A DNA stretch of 29,218 bases, taken from positions 1 to 29,218 of the IMG/VR virus record IMGVR_UViG_3300044703_000141; one strand, 5' to 3'. A program made the translations under genes and the position numbers. The stretch comes from a virus. Shown here piece after piece: positions 777 through 24,231 of this stretch (within the stretch, counting starts at the first letter, position 1; every line of letters begins with the position of its first letter). The notes below the pieces were generated by a model that did not search any database, was not told the DNA's origin, and worked only from the letters and a program-made list of their open reading frames with translations.

Positions 777-1078
777 CCTATAACCCCATCCGCAATGCGT
801 TGGTGCAGCTCAGCAGACGAGGGTGGGTGAAGGGCTATATCGAGGATGCCCAGGGACGTGTTTGCTTGCTTGGTGCCCTCTCGCACTGCTCGGGAGGCAT
901 CGGAGCGTCGACAATCGTAGAGAAGGTGATTGTCGAGCAGTACCCAGAGAGGTATGACGCCGCCGTGTATATGAACCACGTTGCACGGTTCAACGACCAC
1001 CCCGACACGACGCTTGAGGACGTGGTCATGGTCATGGAGAAGGCGGCCCTGCGCCTAGACGAGCAGGTGGTGGCCTGA
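773..1078 (+). CDS. DUF6197-like small phage protein
   Basis: A 101-aa protein starting at ATG 773 inside the stop of the preceding gene (ATGA). It has three blocks: an N-terminal helix ending RRGWVKGY, a central VCLLGALSHC segment, and a C-terminal FNDHPDTTLEDVVMVMEKA segment. The order 'GW.+G', 'CL.GAL', then 'ND.P.TT.EDV...L.KA' is what I know of the DUF6197 family found in actinobacteria and their phages, whose function is unknown. Base composition is less G+C-rich than in the structural genes and several A/T-ending codons appear, which suggests a different history from the virion module. It is followed by a TGATG junction with the next gene. Confidence 0.75.
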   Translation: MTYNPIRNALVQLSRRGWVKGYIEDAQGRVCLLGALSHCSGGIGASTIVEKVIVEQYPERYDAAVYMNHVARFNDHPDTTLEDVVMVMEKAALRLDEQVVA

Positions 1079-1365
1079 TGGCGAAGATCGACCGTGCCCA
1101 CCGCATCGCCAGCAACGCCCTCCTCGGGTTCCACAGCACCCTCCGAGGTCTCGACCAGGCCATTGGCCTGATCAACGAGCACGTCCAGCGGCGCAACGAG
1201 GACATCCAGGGGCACTACGACGCCATCGACGCCCACCACGACTCCATCGAGGAGATCGAGGGTGACATCGGCGTCGCCCTCGACGCCGCACACGAGCACT
1301 TGACCGTCAAGGGGAGGATCGAGCAGATCCTTGGCATCTCACAGGAGCCGCCGCCCGAGCCTTGA
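1078..1365 (+). CDS. Small coiled-coil protein of unknown function
   Basis: A 95-aa protein whose ATG shares one base with the stop of the gene before it (TGATG, 1076-1080). It is rich in His, Asp, Glu and Ile with regular spacing. Residues about 18-70 (LRGLDQAIGLINEHV onward, then DAIDAHHDSIEEIEGDIGVA) look like a long amphipathic coiled coil. The C-terminus ends in PPPEP. It is the last gene of the leftmost run; 384 bases without a gene follow. A role as an oligomeric accessory or structural protein is a guess; no family was recognised. Confidence 0.65.
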   Translation: MAKIDRAHRIASNALLGFHSTLRGLDQAIGLINEHVQRRNEDIQGHYDAIDAHHDSIEEIEGDIGVALDAAHEHLTVKGRIEQILGISQEPPPEP

Positions 1366-1372
1366 GCAGGCT

Positions 1373-1453
1373 TTGGCCCGGGGCAATTCCAACGCCAATT
1401 GGCTGCGGATAGCTGCATGGGTGTGATGGCTTCGTGCCAGCGCCCCGGGCCAA
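1373..1453 (+). ncRNA. Long-stem structured element A (81 nt) upstream of tRNA-Pro
   Basis: Bases 1373-1384 (TTGGCCCGGGGC) are perfectly complementary to 1442-1453 (GCCCCGGGCCAA), giving a 12-bp closing helix around a 57-nt interior. Inside are smaller pairing options: TGGC 1427-1430 with GCCA 1436-1439, and GCTG 1412-1415 with CAGC 1438-1441, which are alternatives. No U-tract follows, so it is not a standard terminator, and no tRNA T-loop is present. It could be RNA structure or a DNA site. Strand is assumed from the flanking genes. Confidence 0.4.
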
Positions 1454-1457
1454 TCAA

Positions 1458-1555
1458 CTCCCCCTTCTGACCCGGGCCTGGGCAGGGAGGTCGGCTCCCG
1501 CGAAGAGTTCGGCCGACTTGGTGGGGTCGTCTGCTGTACGCCGCAGAAGGGGGAG
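1458..1555 (+). ncRNA. Long-stem structured element B (98 nt) directly before tRNA-Pro
   Basis: Bases 1458-1469 (CTCCCCCTTCTG) pair perfectly with 1544-1555 (CAGAAGGGGGAG). A nested helix can form between ACCC 1470-1473 and GGGT 1524-1527, extendable by G1469-C1528 as an alternative. Deeper still, GTCGGC 1490-1495 pairs with GCCGAC 1512-1517, followed after a bulge by CGAA 1501-1504 with TTCG 1508-1511. The nested layers form one elongated hairpin, with a 3'-side single-stranded segment 1529-1543. It begins four bases after element A and ends six bases before the tRNA. No U-tract follows. Confidence 0.42.
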
Positions 1556-1561
1556 GCCCAT

Positions 1562-1635
1562 CGGGATGTGGCCCAGCTTGGCAGGGCGCCTGCTTTGGGA
1601 GCAGGAGGTCGGGGGTTCGAATCCCCCTATCCCGA
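1562..1635 (+). tRNA. tRNA-Pro (anticodon UGG)
   Basis: A complete cloverleaf can be read. The acceptor stem is CGGGATG (1562-1568) with TATCCCG (1628-1634), including one G-U pair. The D arm is GCCC/GGGC. The anticodon arm is CCTGC-TTTGGGA-GCAGG with UGG at the anticodon positions. The T arm is GGGGG-TTCGAAT-CCCCC. The discriminator is A1635 and the CCA end is not encoded. UGG would read CCA, CCG and probably CCU codons. The phage's proteins include strikingly Pro-rich segments (portal tail, the 133-aa protein), so supplementing this tRNA could help their translation; that is inference. It sits between two long-stem elements in a gene-free stretch just before the terminase. Confidence 0.93.
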
Positions 1636-1638
1636 CTT

Positions 1639-1726
1639 GTAGACGAGGGCCGCTGGCAACCCAGCCTTGGGTCCTAAGTCGCAGAGCGCGCTGACCAGGC
1701 AGCGGCGCCAGGCGGCCCTCGTCTGC
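1639..1726 (+). ncRNA. Branched long-stem element C (88 nt) between tRNA-Pro and terminase
   Basis: AGACGAGGGCCG (1641-1652) pairs with CGGCCCTCGTCT (1713-1724). After a single bulged G1712 the helix continues as CTGGC (1653-1657) with GCCAG (1707-1711). This gives 17 bp with one bulge, plus a possible U1640-G1725 and G1639-C1726. Two hairpins can form inside: ACCCA 1659-1663 with TGGGT 1668-1672 (4-nt loop), and CGCTG 1689-1693 with CAGCG 1700-1704 (6-nt loop). This is a plausible three-way junction. It ends 23 bases before the terminase start codon. No U-tract follows. It could be a structured RNA or a DNA-level packaging or regulatory site. Confidence 0.48.
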
Positions 1727-1735
1727 CCATTGGTG

Positions 1736-1755
1736 GGGGTAGGGCTGAGATGCCC
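1736..1755 (+). promoter_or_regulatory. G-rich leader with start-codon hairpin, terminase
   Basis: The leader reads GGGGTAGGGC followed by TGAG and the ATG. GGGC 1742-1745 can pair with GCCC 1752-1755, leaving the first two bases of the start codon in a 6-nt loop. The G-run and GTAGG serve as the ribosome-binding site. The same layout occurs before 3887, 19447, 25615 and 27340. Confidence 0.5.
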
Positions 1756-3657
1756 GAGCCCAAGTACCAGGCCGCCCGCAACTGGTCGCGTGAGCGCCGC
1801 TTCGCCGAGGCGGTCAAGCGCGTCGTGGACGAGGACTGGACCCAGGCCGACGCCGCCGTGCAGTTCGGCGTCTCCCGCCCCCGCCTCAATGAGCACGTCA
1901 AGGCGTACAAGGAGAGGCAGGCCGACCTAGCCGAGCGCGTGCTGGCCCAGGCGGTTGACCCGGTCGGGCTGAATGAGCGCCGCAGGGTCGGCACCTTCGA
2001 GGAGTTCGACGAGCACTACTTCGGCCGGTGGCAGTGCCCCGACTGCGAGACCCACCACCCCACGCCGGAGTTCCACCGTGACATCGACAGGGCGCTGGAG
2101 GGCGAGAACAGCCGCGTCCTCATCAATATGCCGCCGTACCACGCCAAGTCGACGCGCGTGACCGTCAAGCACACCGTCTACCAGCTCGTGAGGGACCCGA
2201 ACCACCGGACCATCATCATCTCGAAGTCCCTCGGCTTCGCCAAGGAGTTCCTGCACTCCATCGACCAGTTGCTCACCAACCCCGACCTCTACCTCGGGGG
2301 GCCGAGCCTGCTCGAGGATTGGGGGCCGTTCAAGGACGACTCCAAGGACTCCATCTGGAACACCGAGAAGATCTACGTCGCCGGCCGGGTGACGGCCGAG
2401 AAGGACCCGACCGTCAAGGTGATCGGGGTCGGCGGCCAGATCTACGGCTCCCGGGCCGACACCATCAAGGCGGACGACGTCGCCACCCTGGAGAACCAGC
2501 GCAACCCCGAGCGGGTCATGCAGATGCTGGAGTGGTTCGACAAGGAGGTCTCCTCCCGCATCGGGCGCCGGGGGAAGCTCATATGGGTCGGCACCCGCGT
2601 CCACCCGGGGGACATCTACTCCACCCTGGGCAACCGCGAGGGCTACAAGGTGCTGCGCTTCCCGGCCATCCTCCAGGAGGGCACCGACGAGGGGCCTGGC
2701 CTGACCCTGTGGCCGGACCACTTCACCTACGAGATGGCGTGCTCGAAGCGCACGGAGATGTCCGACGCCGACTTCCAGCTCGTCTACCAGAACGTCGACA
2801 TACCCGGCCTCGGCGCCTCGTTCACGGCCGAGATGCTCGACGAGTGCAAGGACCGAGAGCGGATGCGCGGGCACTACGACCCGTCGTGGCGCCTCATCGC
2901 CGGCCTCGACCTGGCCGGCGGCAACGCCGGGTCCGGCTACACGGCCGGGACCCTGGAGGGCATCGACCTCAAGACCGGCAAGCGCTTCCTCGTGGACATC
3001 TTCAACGTGAAGTCCATGCGCGCCCCGCAGCTCAAGGGCCAGATCCTTGACTGGTCGGACATGTACCCGATCTACGAATGGCGCGTAGAGAACAATGGGT
3101 TACAAAGTAACCTAGTTCAGTACAATGAGGAGATAATCACCCATCTCGCCAAGCGTGGCATTCGGGTGACCGGCCACAACACGGCGAGCAACAAGTGGGA
3201 CCCGCAATTCGGCGTCGAGTCCCTGGCCCCGCTCTACCAGGCGCAGATGGTCTCCATCCCGTGGGGCAACTCCTCGACGGCGCAGGTCTTTCAGCAGCTC
3301 ATCAACCAGCTCCTGACGTTCCCCATGGGCTCACTCTCCGACGTGGTGATGTCCCACTGGTTCGCTGACCTGGGCTGCCGCGACCTCCTGCGCCGGGCGC
3401 ACCTGCCGATGTTCAACGAGCGCATGCGCGTCCCCGAGCGGGTTGCCCGCCGTCGCCGGGTCATCGACTTCGCCAGCGGCGAGGTGCGGAGCATCCCGCT
3501 CGCAGAGCAGCGCCGGGCCGTCTACCGGGGCCGGGGCACGAGGGGCTACCGCCGGGTGATGGTTGGCCACCCCACGCCGCACCGGGACTTCGAGGAGCCA
3601 GCGCCCGAGGCGCCACAGCGCTTCGTGAACGTGGCTGGCGAGGTGCTAGCGGACTAG
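1750..3657 (+). CDS. Terminase large subunit (packaging ATPase/nuclease) with N-terminal HTH
   Basis: This 635-aa protein is the DNA-packaging motor. It would dock on the portal, use ATP to translocate DNA into the prohead and cut the concatemer. Residues 16-56 form a helix-turn-helix-like segment (WTQADAAVQFGVSRPRL), like small-terminase or transposase DNA-binding heads; no separate small subunit is seen. C96-x2-C99 followed by His residues may bind metal. The ATPase domain shows a Walker A-like MPPYHAKST (127-135), acidic DD at 242-243 as Walker B candidate, and the coupling motif VGTRVHPGD (280-288). The RNase H-like nuclease has D387 (GLDLAGG), E447 (WRVENNG) and D540 (WFADLG) as likely metal ligands. 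The ATG at 1750 follows a G-rich leader. About 80 bases around the E447 motif are unusually A+T-rich. Family assignment is strong; the HTH role is inference. Confidence 0.95.
   Translation: MPEPKYQAARNWSRERRFAEAVKRVVDEDWTQADAAVQFGVSRPRLNEHVKAYKERQADLAERVLAQAVDPVGLNERRRVGTFEEFDEHYFGRWQCPDCETHHPTPEFHRDIDRALEGENSRVLINMPPYHAKSTRVTVKHTVYQLVRDPNHRTIIISKSLGFAKEFLHSIDQLLTNPDLYLGGPSLLEDWGPFKDDSKDSIWNTEKIYVAGRVTAEKDPTVKVIGVGGQIYGSRADTIKADDVATLENQRNPERVMQMLEWFDKEVSSRIGRRGKLIWVGTRVHPGDIYSTLGNREGYKVLRFPAILQEGTDEGPGLTLWPDHFTYEMACSKRTEMSDADFQLVYQNVDIPGLGASFTAEMLDECKDRERMRGHYDPSWRLIAGLDLAGGNAGSGYTAGTLEGIDLKTGKRFLVDIFNVKSMRAPQLKGQILDWSDMYPIYEWRVENNGLQSNLVQYNEEIITHLAKRGIRVTGHNTASNKWDPQFGVESLAPLYQAQMVSIPWGNSSTAQVFQQLINQLLTFPMGSLSDVVMSHWFADLGCRDLLRRAHLPMFNERMRVPERVARRRRVIDFASGEVRSIPLAEQRRAVYRGRGTRGYRRVMVGHPTPHRDFEEPAPEAPQRFVNVAGEVLAD
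3096..3114. other. A+T-rich island with a palindrome inside the terminase gene
   Basis: GGTTAC (3098-3103) and GTAACC (3107-3112) flank AAA, a perfect 6-bp inverted repeat extendable by a T-A pair beyond a G-T pair. It lies in a stretch (about 3076-3150) with codons rare elsewhere here (TTA, CAA, AGT, CTA, GTT, ATA). The protein sequence, the second nuclease motif, remains intact. Confidence 0.5.
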
Positions 3658-3849: not shown

Positions 3850-3874
3850 GTCCCCATGGTAGGCCGCGCTTGGG

Positions 3875-3896
3875 GGTAGGGCCGAGATGCCCTTCC
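3875..3896 (+). promoter_or_regulatory. G-rich leader with start-codon hairpin, 97-aa gene
   Basis: GG-T-AGGGC (3875-3882) can pair with GCCC-T-T-CC (3889-3896): seven pairs with a single U-U mismatch. The 6-nt loop CGAGAT (3883-3888) contains most of the ATG at 3887. It is almost the same sequence as the terminase leader up to the start codon, but the downstream arm differs and still pairs. Confidence 0.55.
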
Positions 3897-19398: not shown

Positions 19399-19434
19399 CC
19401 AAGGGGCGCCTTCGGGCGCCCCTTGGCCGTTCTT
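19399..19434 (+). terminator. Intrinsic terminator after the capsid block
   Basis: CCAAGGGGCGCC (19399-19410), a TTCG tetraloop, and GGCGCCCCTTGG (19415-19426) form a perfect 12-bp hairpin. It is followed by CCGTTCTT, a weak T-tract. It would end or attenuate the capsid transcript. Confidence 0.8.
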
Positions 19435-21179: not shown

Positions 21180-22354
21180 TGGCCATTGCCTACTACGGCA
21201 TCGTCGGGTCCGGGGCTGGCAGCGGCTCCAGCTTCCCCCTGGCGCTCACGGCCATCCCAGACGGGGTCCTCCTCCTGGTGTGCGTCAACTACCACGGCAG
21301 CCAGACGCTGTCCATGTCTGGATTCAGCGGCACGCAGGTCGTTGACTTCGTTGGCAGCTCCAACCGCATGCAGGTCTTCTGGAGGATCGCCGCCTCAGAG
21401 CCGGCGAGCTATACCATCAACTTCTCCGGCCCTGTCATCGCGAACTTCGTCGTCCTGGCCTACTCCGGCACTCATGCCTCCTCGCCGGTCAGCCAGGTCC
21501 AGACGCAGGCGTCGACCAGCTCGGCCGTCGTGACGGCGCCCGCTGTGACGTCTGAGCGGGACTCCAAGGTCGTGCATGTCTACGGCGCCAGCCCGGACAC
21601 CAACATTGGGCCGACCCTCTCGGGCGGCCAGGCGCAGAGGACCCTCAACGGCGCCATGACCATCGCTGACTCAGACCTGGCATCCGCGGGGACCCTCGCC
21701 GCTACCACGGCGACCTACCCGAGCCCGGCCCCATCGGCGGTCGGGGCGAGGCTGGTCCTCTGGGCGGCCACGGCACCGGCGCTGGCCATCACGGCGCCGA
21801 CCGGCACCGTGCCCACTGGTGGCCCCAGCCAGGCCGTCACATGGTCGTACGCCGGCACCGTGTCCTTCTACCGGGTGCGATTCACGAATGCCGCGGGGTC
21901 GACGACCTACTATGACTCGGGGACCATCTACTCGCCAGGGGCCACGTCCGTCCCCGTCGACCTCGTGGCCGCCGGGGTCCCCACCGACACCACCGGGAGC
22001 GCCCTGCGGGTCCTGGTCGACCTCACGATGGTCGCTGGCGTCACCTGGGCCTCGTCGGACTCCAAGGCGCTCGACGTCCAGTGGGGCGTCGTCACGGCCT
22101 CGATCACCTCGCCCGCGTCGGGCGCCGTCCTGACGGCGTCCTCCGTGACCCCGGCGTGGTCGTTCGCGTCGACCAGGGGCAAGGCGCAGGGCACCTACCG
22201 GGTGCGCCTCCTGGCCGACTCCGGGCTGGTGCTCCACGACTCGGGGTGGGTCACCTCGGCGGCCACGAGCTACGCCATCCCGTACGTGCTGTCGGACCTG
22301 ACCCACTACACCATCGGCGTGCAGCTCAAGAACTCGGAGGGGGTCCCCTCGTGA
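21179..22354 (+). CDS. Virion surface protein: jelly-roll domain plus two Ig/Fn3-like domains
   Basis: A 391-aa protein starting in TGATG. Residues about 1-197 read as a jelly-roll: PDGVLLLVCVNYHG, FSGTQVVDF, MQVFWRIAASEPASYTINFSG, then a VVTAPAVTSERDSKVVHVYG sheet and an AVGARLVLWAA end. Residues 200-298 and 304-391 are two Ig/fibronectin-like repeats, each opening with ITAPTGTVP or ITSPASGAVL, then VTWSYAG or VTPAWSFAS, and YRVRFTNAAG or YRVRLLADSG. Such repeats are common on phage surfaces, where they bind sugars or host surfaces weakly. A tail-fibre or decoration role is inferred from position before the propeller-like protein. Confidence 0.75.
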   Translation: MAIAYYGIVGSGAGSGSSFPLALTAIPDGVLLLVCVNYHGSQTLSMSGFSGTQVVDFVGSSNRMQVFWRIAASEPASYTINFSGPVIANFVVLAYSGTHASSPVSQVQTQASTSSAVVTAPAVTSERDSKVVHVYGASPDTNIGPTLSGGQAQRTLNGAMTIADSDLASAGTLAATTATYPSPAPSAVGARLVLWAATAPALAITAPTGTVPTGGPSQAVTWSYAGTVSFYRVRFTNAAGSTTYYDSGTIYSPGATSVPVDLVAAGVPTDTTGSALRVLVDLTMVAGVTWASSDSKALDVQWGVVTASITSPASGAVLTASSVTPAWSFASTRGKAQGTYRVRLLADSGLVLHDSGWVTSAATSYAIPYVLSDLTHYTIGVQLKNSEGVPS

Positions 22355-24231
22355 CCGAGTCGACCGTGGGCTTCACGACGGACTTCAGCTCGGCCGTCAA
22401 CTACCCGGACCTCGACTCGGTCGGGCGCGTCTACGAGGTCGGGATCAACGGCGTCGGCTACATGCTGGCCGACGACCCACAGGACCCGGACCGCCGGTAC
22501 CGGCGCGTCACGCAGCCCCTTGAGGCGCAGCGCTTCTACTCCAGCGTCGAGGCGTTCAACGAGACCATCATCCACTACCACTTCGTCGGCTGGGACGACT
22601 GGACGGCTGGCGCCGGCCAGACGTGGTACCAGCGGGACAACTCGTCGAACTCCCGGTACCTCGACTCCGATGGGGTCAACCCGTTCGAGCCATTCCAGCT
22701 CACGCTCCTGCCCGCCACCGCCGTTGCTGCTGCCACCGCGTACGCCACCCCTCGCGCCGTGGTCGTCGGCTCCGTGCTCTACATGCAGACCGGCGACAAG
22801 CAGCTCACGGCGTTCGCCACACCCGGCGGGGCCGGGACGGCGTTCACCATCGCCGCTGCCACCACGATCACCGACCTCACCACGGACGGCCAGTACTGGT
22901 ACGCCGCCGCTGGCGCCCAGGGTGTCTTCCGGGGGTCCACGGCGGCCGACCCCGGGGCCGCCTGGTCCACAGTGGCCGCCACCGTCATCTCCTTCGCGGG
23001 CGGGCGCGTCTGCGCCGCCTACGCCAGCTCTGGCAGCGCCCCCAACCGCTTCACCACCCTGAACGACGCCGGGGCCGAGGAGGTCGCCGGGGGCCGCCTG
23101 ACGGCCCAGCCCGGGGCCACCCTGACCAAGGCGGTCGGCGGCTCGGGGCACGCGTGGTTCGGGGCGTACTCCGGCAACGCCGGGGTGGTGTACCGCTGGA
23201 ACCTGGGGACTGACACGCCAGCCGTGGCCCTGGAGGTCCCCCCCGGCGAGGTCCCCAAGGCGCTGGCCTGGGACCAGGGCAACGTCATGGTCCGCACCGA
23301 CTCCGTTGGCGGCACGGCAAAGGGCCGGGTCTACCGCTGCGTCGTGGACGCCACCGGGAGCCTCTCGTCGTTCCTGGTATTCGACACCATCGCCACCCCC
23401 GGCTCAGAGCCAGCGTTCGCGGCGAACTCGCGCTTCGTCTTCTGCTCGTGGCCCTCGATGGACGGCACCCACTCCGGGGTGGGTGCGCTGGACCTGAGCA
23501 CGGGCGGCTACACGAAGTGGCTCAAGGCCGCCGCTGGCGGCTCCGTGCGGTCCATCGTCATGTGGCAGGGAAAGTTGGGCTTCGTGGTGGATGGCGTGGG
23601 CCTCTGCTACGAGCAGGGCACGTACGTCACCAGCGGCTGGCTGACGACCTCCATCGCTGACCACAAGTCCAACCTCACGAAGGTCTACGACGAGGTCGCC
23701 ATCTGGTGCAAGCCCCTCGTTACGGGCGAGTCCGTGGCGCTTGACTACACGCTCAACGCCTCCTCGACGTACGCCGCCTTCACGGCGGCCACGCTCGACA
23801 CGCCCGGGCTGACCCGCAAGACCACCGCCCTGGACAAGCAGGGCGTCTCCATCGGCCTCAGGATCACCCTCAACGGGCCTGGGACGAGCACGCCAGCGGT
23901 GTCGCTCTCGCAGGTGCGCAGCCACCTCATCGGCATAGCCGACACACTGGTCCAGCTCCCCGTCAACTGCGCGGACGAGATCTCGGGCCTGAACAATCGC
24001 CCCCTGCCGGAGAACGGCAAGGGCAAGGGGGCGCAGCGCGCCAGGGCGCTAGAGGGGCTCATCCAGACCCGGGTGAGGTTCCAGGACATCGACTGGGCCA
24101 CCACCAAGACGTCCGAGGTATGGGACTGCGTCAACGTGGAGGTGCCCAGCACCGCCGCCCATGACCGCAGCACGGGCAAGAACCGCCTCCTCCAGGTCGC
24201 CATCGTCACCCTGCGAAAGAGGGCGAAGTGA
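22351..24231 (+). CDS. Beta-propeller-like tail protein (candidate tail nozzle), 626 aa
   Basis: I start it at GTG 22351, overlapping the previous stop (GTGA), with GGAGG ten bases upstream. The frame is open from 22081, but the upstream part is an Arg/Gly-rich shadow of the preceding gene. From residue about 125 to 430 short repeats each start with a strand such as AVVVGSVLYMQTGD, DGQYWYAAAGAQGVFRG, GHAWFGAYSGNAGVVYRWN and NVMVRTDSVGGTAKGRVYR. This cadence suggests a beta-propeller. The C-terminal 200 residues form a beta domain (VALDYTLNAS, GVSIGLRITLNG). Propeller tail proteins such as T7 gp12 form the nozzle of short-tailed phages; that identification is inference. Confidence 0.78.
   Translation: MTESTVGFTTDFSSAVNYPDLDSVGRVYEVGINGVGYMLADDPQDPDRRYRRVTQPLEAQRFYSSVEAFNETIIHYHFVGWDDWTAGAGQTWYQRDNSSNSRYLDSDGVNPFEPFQLTLLPATAVAAATAYATPRAVVVGSVLYMQTGDKQLTAFATPGGAGTAFTIAAATTITDLTTDGQYWYAAAGAQGVFRGSTAADPGAAWSTVAATVISFAGGRVCAAYASSGSAPNRFTTLNDAGAEEVAGGRLTAQPGATLTKAVGGSGHAWFGAYSGNAGVVYRWNLGTDTPAVALEVPPGEVPKALAWDQGNVMVRTDSVGGTAKGRVYRCVVDATGSLSSFLVFDTIATPGSEPAFAANSRFVFCSWPSMDGTHSGVGALDLSTGGYTKWLKAAAGGSVRSIVMWQGKLGFVVDGVGLCYEQGTYVTSGWLTTSIADHKSNLTKVYDEVAIWCKPLVTGESVALDYTLNASSTYAAFTAATLDTPGLTRKTTALDKQGVSIGLRITLNGPGTSTPAVSLSQVRSHLIGIADTLVQLPVNCADEISGLNNRPLPENGKGKGAQRARALEGLIQTRVRFQDIDWATTKTSEVWDCVNVEVPSTAAHDRSTGKNRLLQVAIVTLRKRAK

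What the first reader, a model, noticed from the sequence alone, without database searches (positions are those of the whole stretch)
1373..1726. Three unrelated long-stem structures packed around a tRNA-Pro before the terminase
Seen: perfect 12-bp, 12-bp and 12-bp (plus 5 bp beyond one bulge) inverted repeats close 81-, 98- and 88-nt elements. They lie head to tail with only 3-6 bases between elements and tRNA, in the only long gene-free stretch. Their sequences differ, so they are not copies. None has a U-tract. Chance formation of three such closing helices in 354 bases is unlikely even at high G+C. Possible roles, inferred only: non-coding RNAs co-processed with the tRNA, a regulatory leader, a packaging RNA in the manner of phi29 pRNA, or DNA structure at a cos/pac site beside the terminase.
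Basis: partly seen in the sequence, partly recalled or inferred. Interest (0 to 1): 0.8.

Follow-up and report, generated by a model that had tools for sequence, protein, structure and literature searches.

The report
Stem-closed segments flanking phage proline tRNA
In an uncultured phage, a proline tRNA gene sits in a short gene-free gap before the DNA-packaging gene, hemmed in by three unrelated segments that can each fold shut with a 12-13 base-pair stem; the stems are real and far beyond chance, and they most likely guard or cut the RNA around the tRNA, but nothing yet proves what they do.

Summary
Three perfect closing helices (12, 12 and 13 bp) bound segments 1373-1453, 1458-1555 and 1639-1726 around tRNA-Pro(UGG) 1562-1635. 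None of 3000 dinucleotide shuffles had even two such helices. About 650 kb of other fetched DNA holds only 15, five of them a CRISPR array. The stretch lacks codon periodicity, has no U-tract, and matches no Rfam family except the tRNA.

New points. (1) The interiors fold no better than shuffles, so only the closing helices are non-random. (2) Segments 2 and 3 are each followed directly by GCCCATYGG, found nowhere else in the window. (3) The closest relative (TerL 68% identical) has no tRNA and no similar sequence, yet its only 12-bp, 95-nt inverted repeat lies at the same place. (4) A distant relative has a 14-bp, 70-nt element just before a tRNA-fMet. (5) A packaging-like motif upstream of terminase in most other relatives is absent here, which weakens a cos/pac reading; pRNA is unsupported.

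Best reading, about 40%: RNA-processing and end-protection stems around an excised tRNA inside an operon. Main rival: stable small RNAs co-processed with the tRNA. Covariation could not be tested because no homologue of any element was found.

The parts
1373..1453 (+). Element E1: 81-nt segment closed by a perfect 12-bp helix (1373-1384 / 1442-1453); interior 57 nt, predicted to hold two small hairpins. Strand inferred from neighbouring genes.
   Evidence: interior z -0.1
1458..1555 (+). Element E2: 98-nt segment closed by a perfect 12-bp helix (1458-1469 / 1544-1555), 6 nt before the tRNA. Strand inferred from neighbouring genes.
   Evidence: interior z +1.0
1556..1564 (+). GCCCATCGG directly after the E2 3' arm (runs into the tRNA start at 1562); one of only two GCCCATYGG in the window.
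1562..1635 (+). tRNA-Pro, anticodon UGG, no encoded CCA (CUU follows A73).
   Evidence: ARAGORN (1562-1636); Rfam RF00005 65.4 bits
1639..1726 (+). Element E3: 88-nt rod closed by 13 perfect bp (1641-1653 / 1712-1724) plus two outer pairs and 4 bp past a bulge; starts 3 nt after the tRNA discriminator base. Strand inferred from neighbouring genes.
   Evidence: z -5.0 whole; interior z -0.3
1725..1733 (+). GCCCATTGG directly after the perfect E3 3' arm; the second and last GCCCATYGG in the window.
1078..1365 (+). Upstream small gene g4 (95 aa, unknown function), last gene of a tightly packed set 1-1365 (g1-g4); g1-g3 have homologues in L004.
1750..3657 (+). Terminase large subunit (TerL), N-terminal helix-turn-helix-like stretch (inferred).
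   Evidence: PHROG phrog_38 E 3e-75; 68% identical to L004

Best explanation
The stretch 1366-1749 is probably an RNA-processing and end-protection module. It would be transcribed as part of a + strand operon (small genes g1-g4, E1, E2, tRNA-Pro, E3, terL). Host RNase P and 3' tRNA-processing enzymes cut the tRNA out. E1 and E2 then cap the 3' end of the upstream message against 3'-to-5' exonucleases, and E3 caps the new 5' end of the terminase message against 5'-dependent decay. The 12-15 bp helices may also be RNase III entry points. Shown: the helices, their excess over chance, the tRNA, the gene-free stretch, the 3-6 nt packing, the absence of a U-tract, ordinary interiors, a syntenic stem in the nearest relative, and a stem beside a tRNA in another relative. 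Inferred: transcription through the region, cleavage, protection, and which enzymes act.
For: Only the closing helices are non-random; interiors score as shuffles, as expected if a closed end is what matters. E2 ends 6 nt before the tRNA and E3 starts 3 nt after it, where excision would leave new RNA ends. Genes on both sides are on the same strand, and neither promoter nor terminator is found between them. In L004 the only 12-bp inverted repeat of 8.8 kb (span 95 nt) lies at the same place, right after the gene at the g4 position, with unrelated sequence; at about ten such repeats per 647 kb the chance for that 313-nt gap is roughly 0.5%. L068 has a 14-bp, 70-nt element 12 nt before a tRNA-fMet. 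GCCCATYGG follows E2 and E3 and occurs nowhere else in the window. A hairpin at or near the 5' end can stabilise long downstream stretches of mRNA in Bacillus subtilis, and a 5'-terminal stem-loop can stabilise mRNA in E. coli (review PMC3997798).
Against: Transcription is not shown. L004 keeps a syntenic stem without any tRNA, so tRNA excision cannot be the whole story, and that stem overlaps a 53-aa ORF with weak coding signal. L030 (TerL 66%) has neither tRNA nor stems before terL. Tight terminal hairpins would do the same job more simply than 57-74 nt loops. No covariation evidence exists.
Confidence: 0.4

Rival explanations
1. E1, E2 and E3 are three stable small RNAs released from the same precursor as the tRNA and acting in trans on host or phage RNAs or proteins, in the manner of the small stable RNAs of unknown function in the T4 tRNA cluster (recalled).
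For: 81-98 nt lengths, tRNA-like packing, long closing helices; E3 whole-element z -5.0; several relatives carry other RNA elements near TerL, such as an 81-nt tmRNA-like RNA and a tRNA-Met.
Against: Interiors fold no better than shuffles; no homologue in 50,697 phage records or Rfam, and an E3-arm search of IMG/VR found none.
Confidence: 0.25
2. A cis-acting late-operon leader: the structures act on RNA polymerase or on translation of terL, for example as a factor-independent antiterminator like HK022 put RNA (recalled), or as an attenuator.
For: Position directly before terL and the head genes; stems without U-tracts; pre-terL stretches of relatives are somewhat more structured than terL coding DNA (15% against 8% of 100-nt windows with z below -2, Mann-Whitney p 0.008).
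Against: No promoter found upstream (though only sigma-70-type sites are scanned); a tRNA inside such a leader would be unusual; no shared sequence with relatives.
Confidence: 0.12
3. A DNA site: inverted repeats recognised as DNA by terminase or used in packaging (cos/pac).
For: Adjacent to terL; both strands fold about equally well (z -2.9/-2.9, -1.7/-1.6, -5.0/-4.9).
Against: Three different arm sequences with 57-74 nt interiors do not look like repeated protein sites. Most relatives share GGGTNCATAA(A/G) 300-1400 nt upstream of TerL, in many with a C-tract box CCCCCCnCCC...CCCCGACCTTT, and one contig begins exactly at the motif; the window, L004 and L030 lack it, so the packaging site of this branch may lie elsewhere.
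Confidence: 0.1
4. No present function: remnants of decayed tRNA genes or inserted palindromic elements.
For: Sequences not conserved in L004 or L030; non-coding.
Against: Three perfect 12-13 bp helices would be expected to decay without selection; no tRNA signal in E1-E3 even at E up to 5; no target-site duplications visible at the borders.
Confidence: 0.08

Closest known systems
Small stable RNAs of unknown function in the phage T4 tRNA cluster (recalled, not retrieved)
   Same: Non-tRNA segments of roughly this size lying among phage tRNA genes.
   Different: T4 has eight tRNAs in a cluster; here one tRNA and three segments, whose interiors are not more structured than chance; no sequence match; expression unknown.
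RNase III processing hairpins of T7 early mRNA, and rRNA/tRNA processing stalks (recalled)
   Same: Long stems between cistrons or around a stable RNA.
   Different: T7 sites are compact hairpins; here 12-13 bp helices close 57-74 nt interiors. Cleavage not tested.
Theta ribozymes (HDV-like) next to phage tRNAs (PMC10879173)
   Same: RNA element beside a phage tRNA, proposed there to process the tRNA 3' trailer.
   Different: No HDV-like or other ribozyme match in the region even at E up to 5.
phi29 pRNA
   Same: Structured element near packaging genes.
   Different: No Rfam match; three unrelated elements; the TerL belongs to phrog_38 and relatives with the same TerL lack the elements.
Intrinsic terminators after tRNA genes
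   Same: A strong stem 5-9 nt after tRNA-Pro occurs in other contigs (L097, L106, L111).
   Different: Those are 38-44 nt tight hairpins followed by T-rich tails; E3 is 88 nt without U-tract, and E1/E2 lie before the tRNA.

Membership tests
tRNA (control for the central element) | Cloverleaf, anticodon, covariance-model score above gathering | tested here: met
   ARAGORN tRNA-Pro(tgg); RF00005 65.4 bits against 29
tRNA or tRNA-like RNA (E1-E3) | Match to tRNA or tmRNA models | tested here: not met
   No match apart from the tRNA-Pro at E up to 5
Self-cleaving ribozymes (HDV/theta, hammerhead, twister etc.) | Match to the Rfam model | tested here: not met
   No match in 1300-1760 at E up to 5; relatives do carry hammerhead II elsewhere
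phi29-type pRNA | Match to the Rfam library, which would hold described pRNA families | tested here: not met
   that a pRNA model is in the library was not checked separately
Intrinsic terminator | Short GC-rich stem followed by a T-run | tested here: not met
   no terminator-like site in 1366-1749
Integron attC sites | Arms ending in RYYYAAC / GTTRRRY (recalled) | tested here: not met
   Arm sequences read directly do not fit
Structured RNA family (general) | Compensatory changes in homologues | not testable with these tools
   No homologue of any element found
Structured RNA family (general) | Interior more stable than shuffled sequence | tested here: not met
   z -0.1, +1.0, -0.3
T4-type tRNA-cluster stable RNAs | Discrete stable transcript processed from the tRNA precursor | not testable with these tools
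   No expression data
cos/pac site | Genome ends map there | not testable with these tools
   Contig is a linear record of unknown completeness; the packaging-like motif of the relatives is absent
HK022 put-type antiterminator RNA | Suppresses terminators in cis; two adjacent stem-loops | not tested
   Needs a reporter experiment

The most novel reading that the evidence does not exclude
A phage module in which unrelated, stem-closed 70-100 nt RNAs are packed with a tRNA and released together as small RNAs. The architecture (12-14 bp closing helix, fixed length, place next to a tRNA or before terL) would be under selection while the sequence is replaced freely, as the L004 and L068 cases hint, giving a class of phage RNA recognised by shape only.
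Probability: 0.17. Interest if true: 0.75.

Novelty: new variant of a known kind. Interest (0 to 1): 0.42.

Why it matters
If the stems guard or direct the cutting of RNA around a tRNA inside a structural operon, they show how a phage can place a tRNA between genes without losing the messages on either side. If they are small RNAs, they would be a group that sequence-based RNA surveys cannot find, because only shape and position would be kept. Either way the locus is a compact, testable 384-bp piece.

Tried and rejected
Rfam at gathering and permissive thresholds: only the tRNA. BLASTN of E1-E2 and of E3 in 50,697 phage records at E up to 10: only short weak hits. Exact E3 arms with a variable gap in IMG/VR: none. 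TerL in GTDB genomes: none; the integrase gave one weak hit (28% identity), so no host was found. A structure-only comparison of pre-TerL regions showed modest enrichment but no common fold. The sequence-conserved C-tract element of the marine relatives was considered as the counterpart of E1-E3 and rejected: it is conserved as sequence, not as a helix, and is absent from the window. The inverted-repeat cluster in L108 looked like a parallel but is a CRISPR array. The repeat at 22353-22422 lies at the end of one ORF and inside an overlapping one and was not counted. The long stem after tRNA-Pro in L102 was considered as a parallel; it encloses a tRNA-Ser-like sequence with an extended acceptor stem.

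Full report
Observation. Between the stop codon of a 95-aa gene (ends 1365) and the terL start (1750) lie 384 bases holding three inverted repeats and a tRNA-Pro. The arms are perfect over 12, 12 and 13 bp and close segments 1373-1453, 1458-1555 and 1639-1726. Distances are 4, 6 and 3 nt.

Chance. In 3000 dinucleotide-preserving shuffles of 1366-1749, 14 had one repeat of 12 bp or more within 120 nt and none had two. An empirical control, 678 kb of non-redundant phage and related contigs fetched here, has 18 repeats of that kind with span 60-120: three are these, five belong to a CRISPR array in L108, ten are scattered.

Coding. GC by codon position is strongly periodic in the genes before and after, and flat across 1396-1791. 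The ORFs listed here cross the tRNA or the elements and show no such signal.

What is non-random. Whole elements have z-scores of -2.9, -1.7 and -5.0, but the interiors alone give -0.1, +1.0 and -0.3. So the closing helices carry the signal. Both strands give nearly the same z-scores, so folding does not tell RNA from DNA. GCCCATYGG occurs twice in the window, each time directly after the perfect 3' arm of E2 and of E3; this may be a shared processing or duplication trace, and it is a post hoc observation.

Setting. The window is an IMG/VR record of 29,218 bases with a terminase (phrog_38), a portal (phrog_104) and a tyrosine integrase at the far end, so probably a temperate phage. No host was found.

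Relatives. TerL and portal searches gave more than 60 related contigs. The nearest, L004 (TerL 68%, portal 73-75%), keeps homologues of g1-g3 at 30-34% identity and has a gene at the g4 position. It has no tRNA, but right after that gene it has its only 12-bp repeat, span 95 nt, with unrelated sequence. At ten repeats per 647 kb the expected number in that 313-nt gap is about 0.005. A weakly coding 53-aa ORF overlaps it. L030 (TerL 66%) is mostly coding up to terL and has none there. L068 has a 14-bp, 70-nt element 12 nt before a tRNA-fMet. Others carry different RNA features: a tRNA-Met in L066, an 81-nt tmRNA-like RNA in L023. So a structured, sometimes tRNA-bearing stretch near terL recurs, while sequences do not.

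Packaging reading. Most relatives share GGGTNCATAA 300-1400 nt upstream of TerL, and many have a C-tract box after it. One contig begins exactly at the motif and another 11 nt before it. This looks more like a packaging site than E1-E3 do, and it is absent from the window, L004 and L030. This is inference from position and conservation only.

Mechanism. The position of E2 and E3 at the two edges of the tRNA suggests that after tRNA excision they become the end structures of the flanking messages. That a hairpin at or near the 5' end can protect long downstream regions of mRNA is established in Bacillus subtilis (PMC3997798). RNase III cutting of the helices is a further possibility. The weak points are that L004 has a stem without a tRNA, that nothing shows transcription, and that 57-74 nt interiors are not needed for protection. 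I put this at 0.4, co-processed small RNAs at 0.25, a cis leader at 0.12, a DNA site at 0.1, and no function at 0.08.

Verdict. Real and statistically strong feature, ordinary interiors, no homologues found, plausible RNA-processing role, function untested.

Noticed in passing
L070:966-3387 (-), L115:1398-2677 (-), L117:1331-2588 (-), L121:327-1174 (-): Arrays of three to six hammerhead type II ribozymes on the strand opposite to terL, upstream of it, in relatives of this phage.
   Followed up: partly
L023:3389-3469 (+): An 81-nt tmRNA-like RNA (RF00023, 60.3 bits) directly upstream of terL; it spans both ends of the model but lacks room for the messenger part.
   Followed up: partly
Upstream of terL in most relatives, e.g. 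L055:1, L010:4704, L047:110, L066:3008: Strongly conserved motif GGGTNCATAA(A/G), in many followed by a C-tract box CCCCCCnCCC...CCCCGACCTTT; candidate cos/pac site; the L055 contig starts exactly at it.
   Followed up: partly
L068:9024-9085 (+): tRNA-like sequence after the tRNA-fMet with D- and T-arm-like stretches but apparently a shortened anticodon region; not called by ARAGORN.
   Followed up: no
L102:2260-2450 (-): After tRNA-Pro, a tRNA-Ser-like sequence missed by ARAGORN whose acceptor stem appears extended by leader-trailer pairing.
   Followed up: partly
L018 and L019:2012-2096 (-), L024:1725-1809 (-): Marine relatives carry a tRNA called with anticodon CTA (amber reader) in two contigs and CTG in a third.
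   Followed up: no
window 1736-1755 and 3873-3892: Nearly identical start regions GGGGTAGGGC(T/C)GAGATGCCC before terL and before the next small ORF.
   Followed up: no
window 19399-19426: Perfect 12-bp hairpin with a 4-nt loop after an ORF end, likely a terminator-like structure without a long T-run.
   Followed up: no
L108:664-1030: CRISPR array of six repeats with about 66-nt period in a contig found through its tRNA-Pro.
   Followed up: partly
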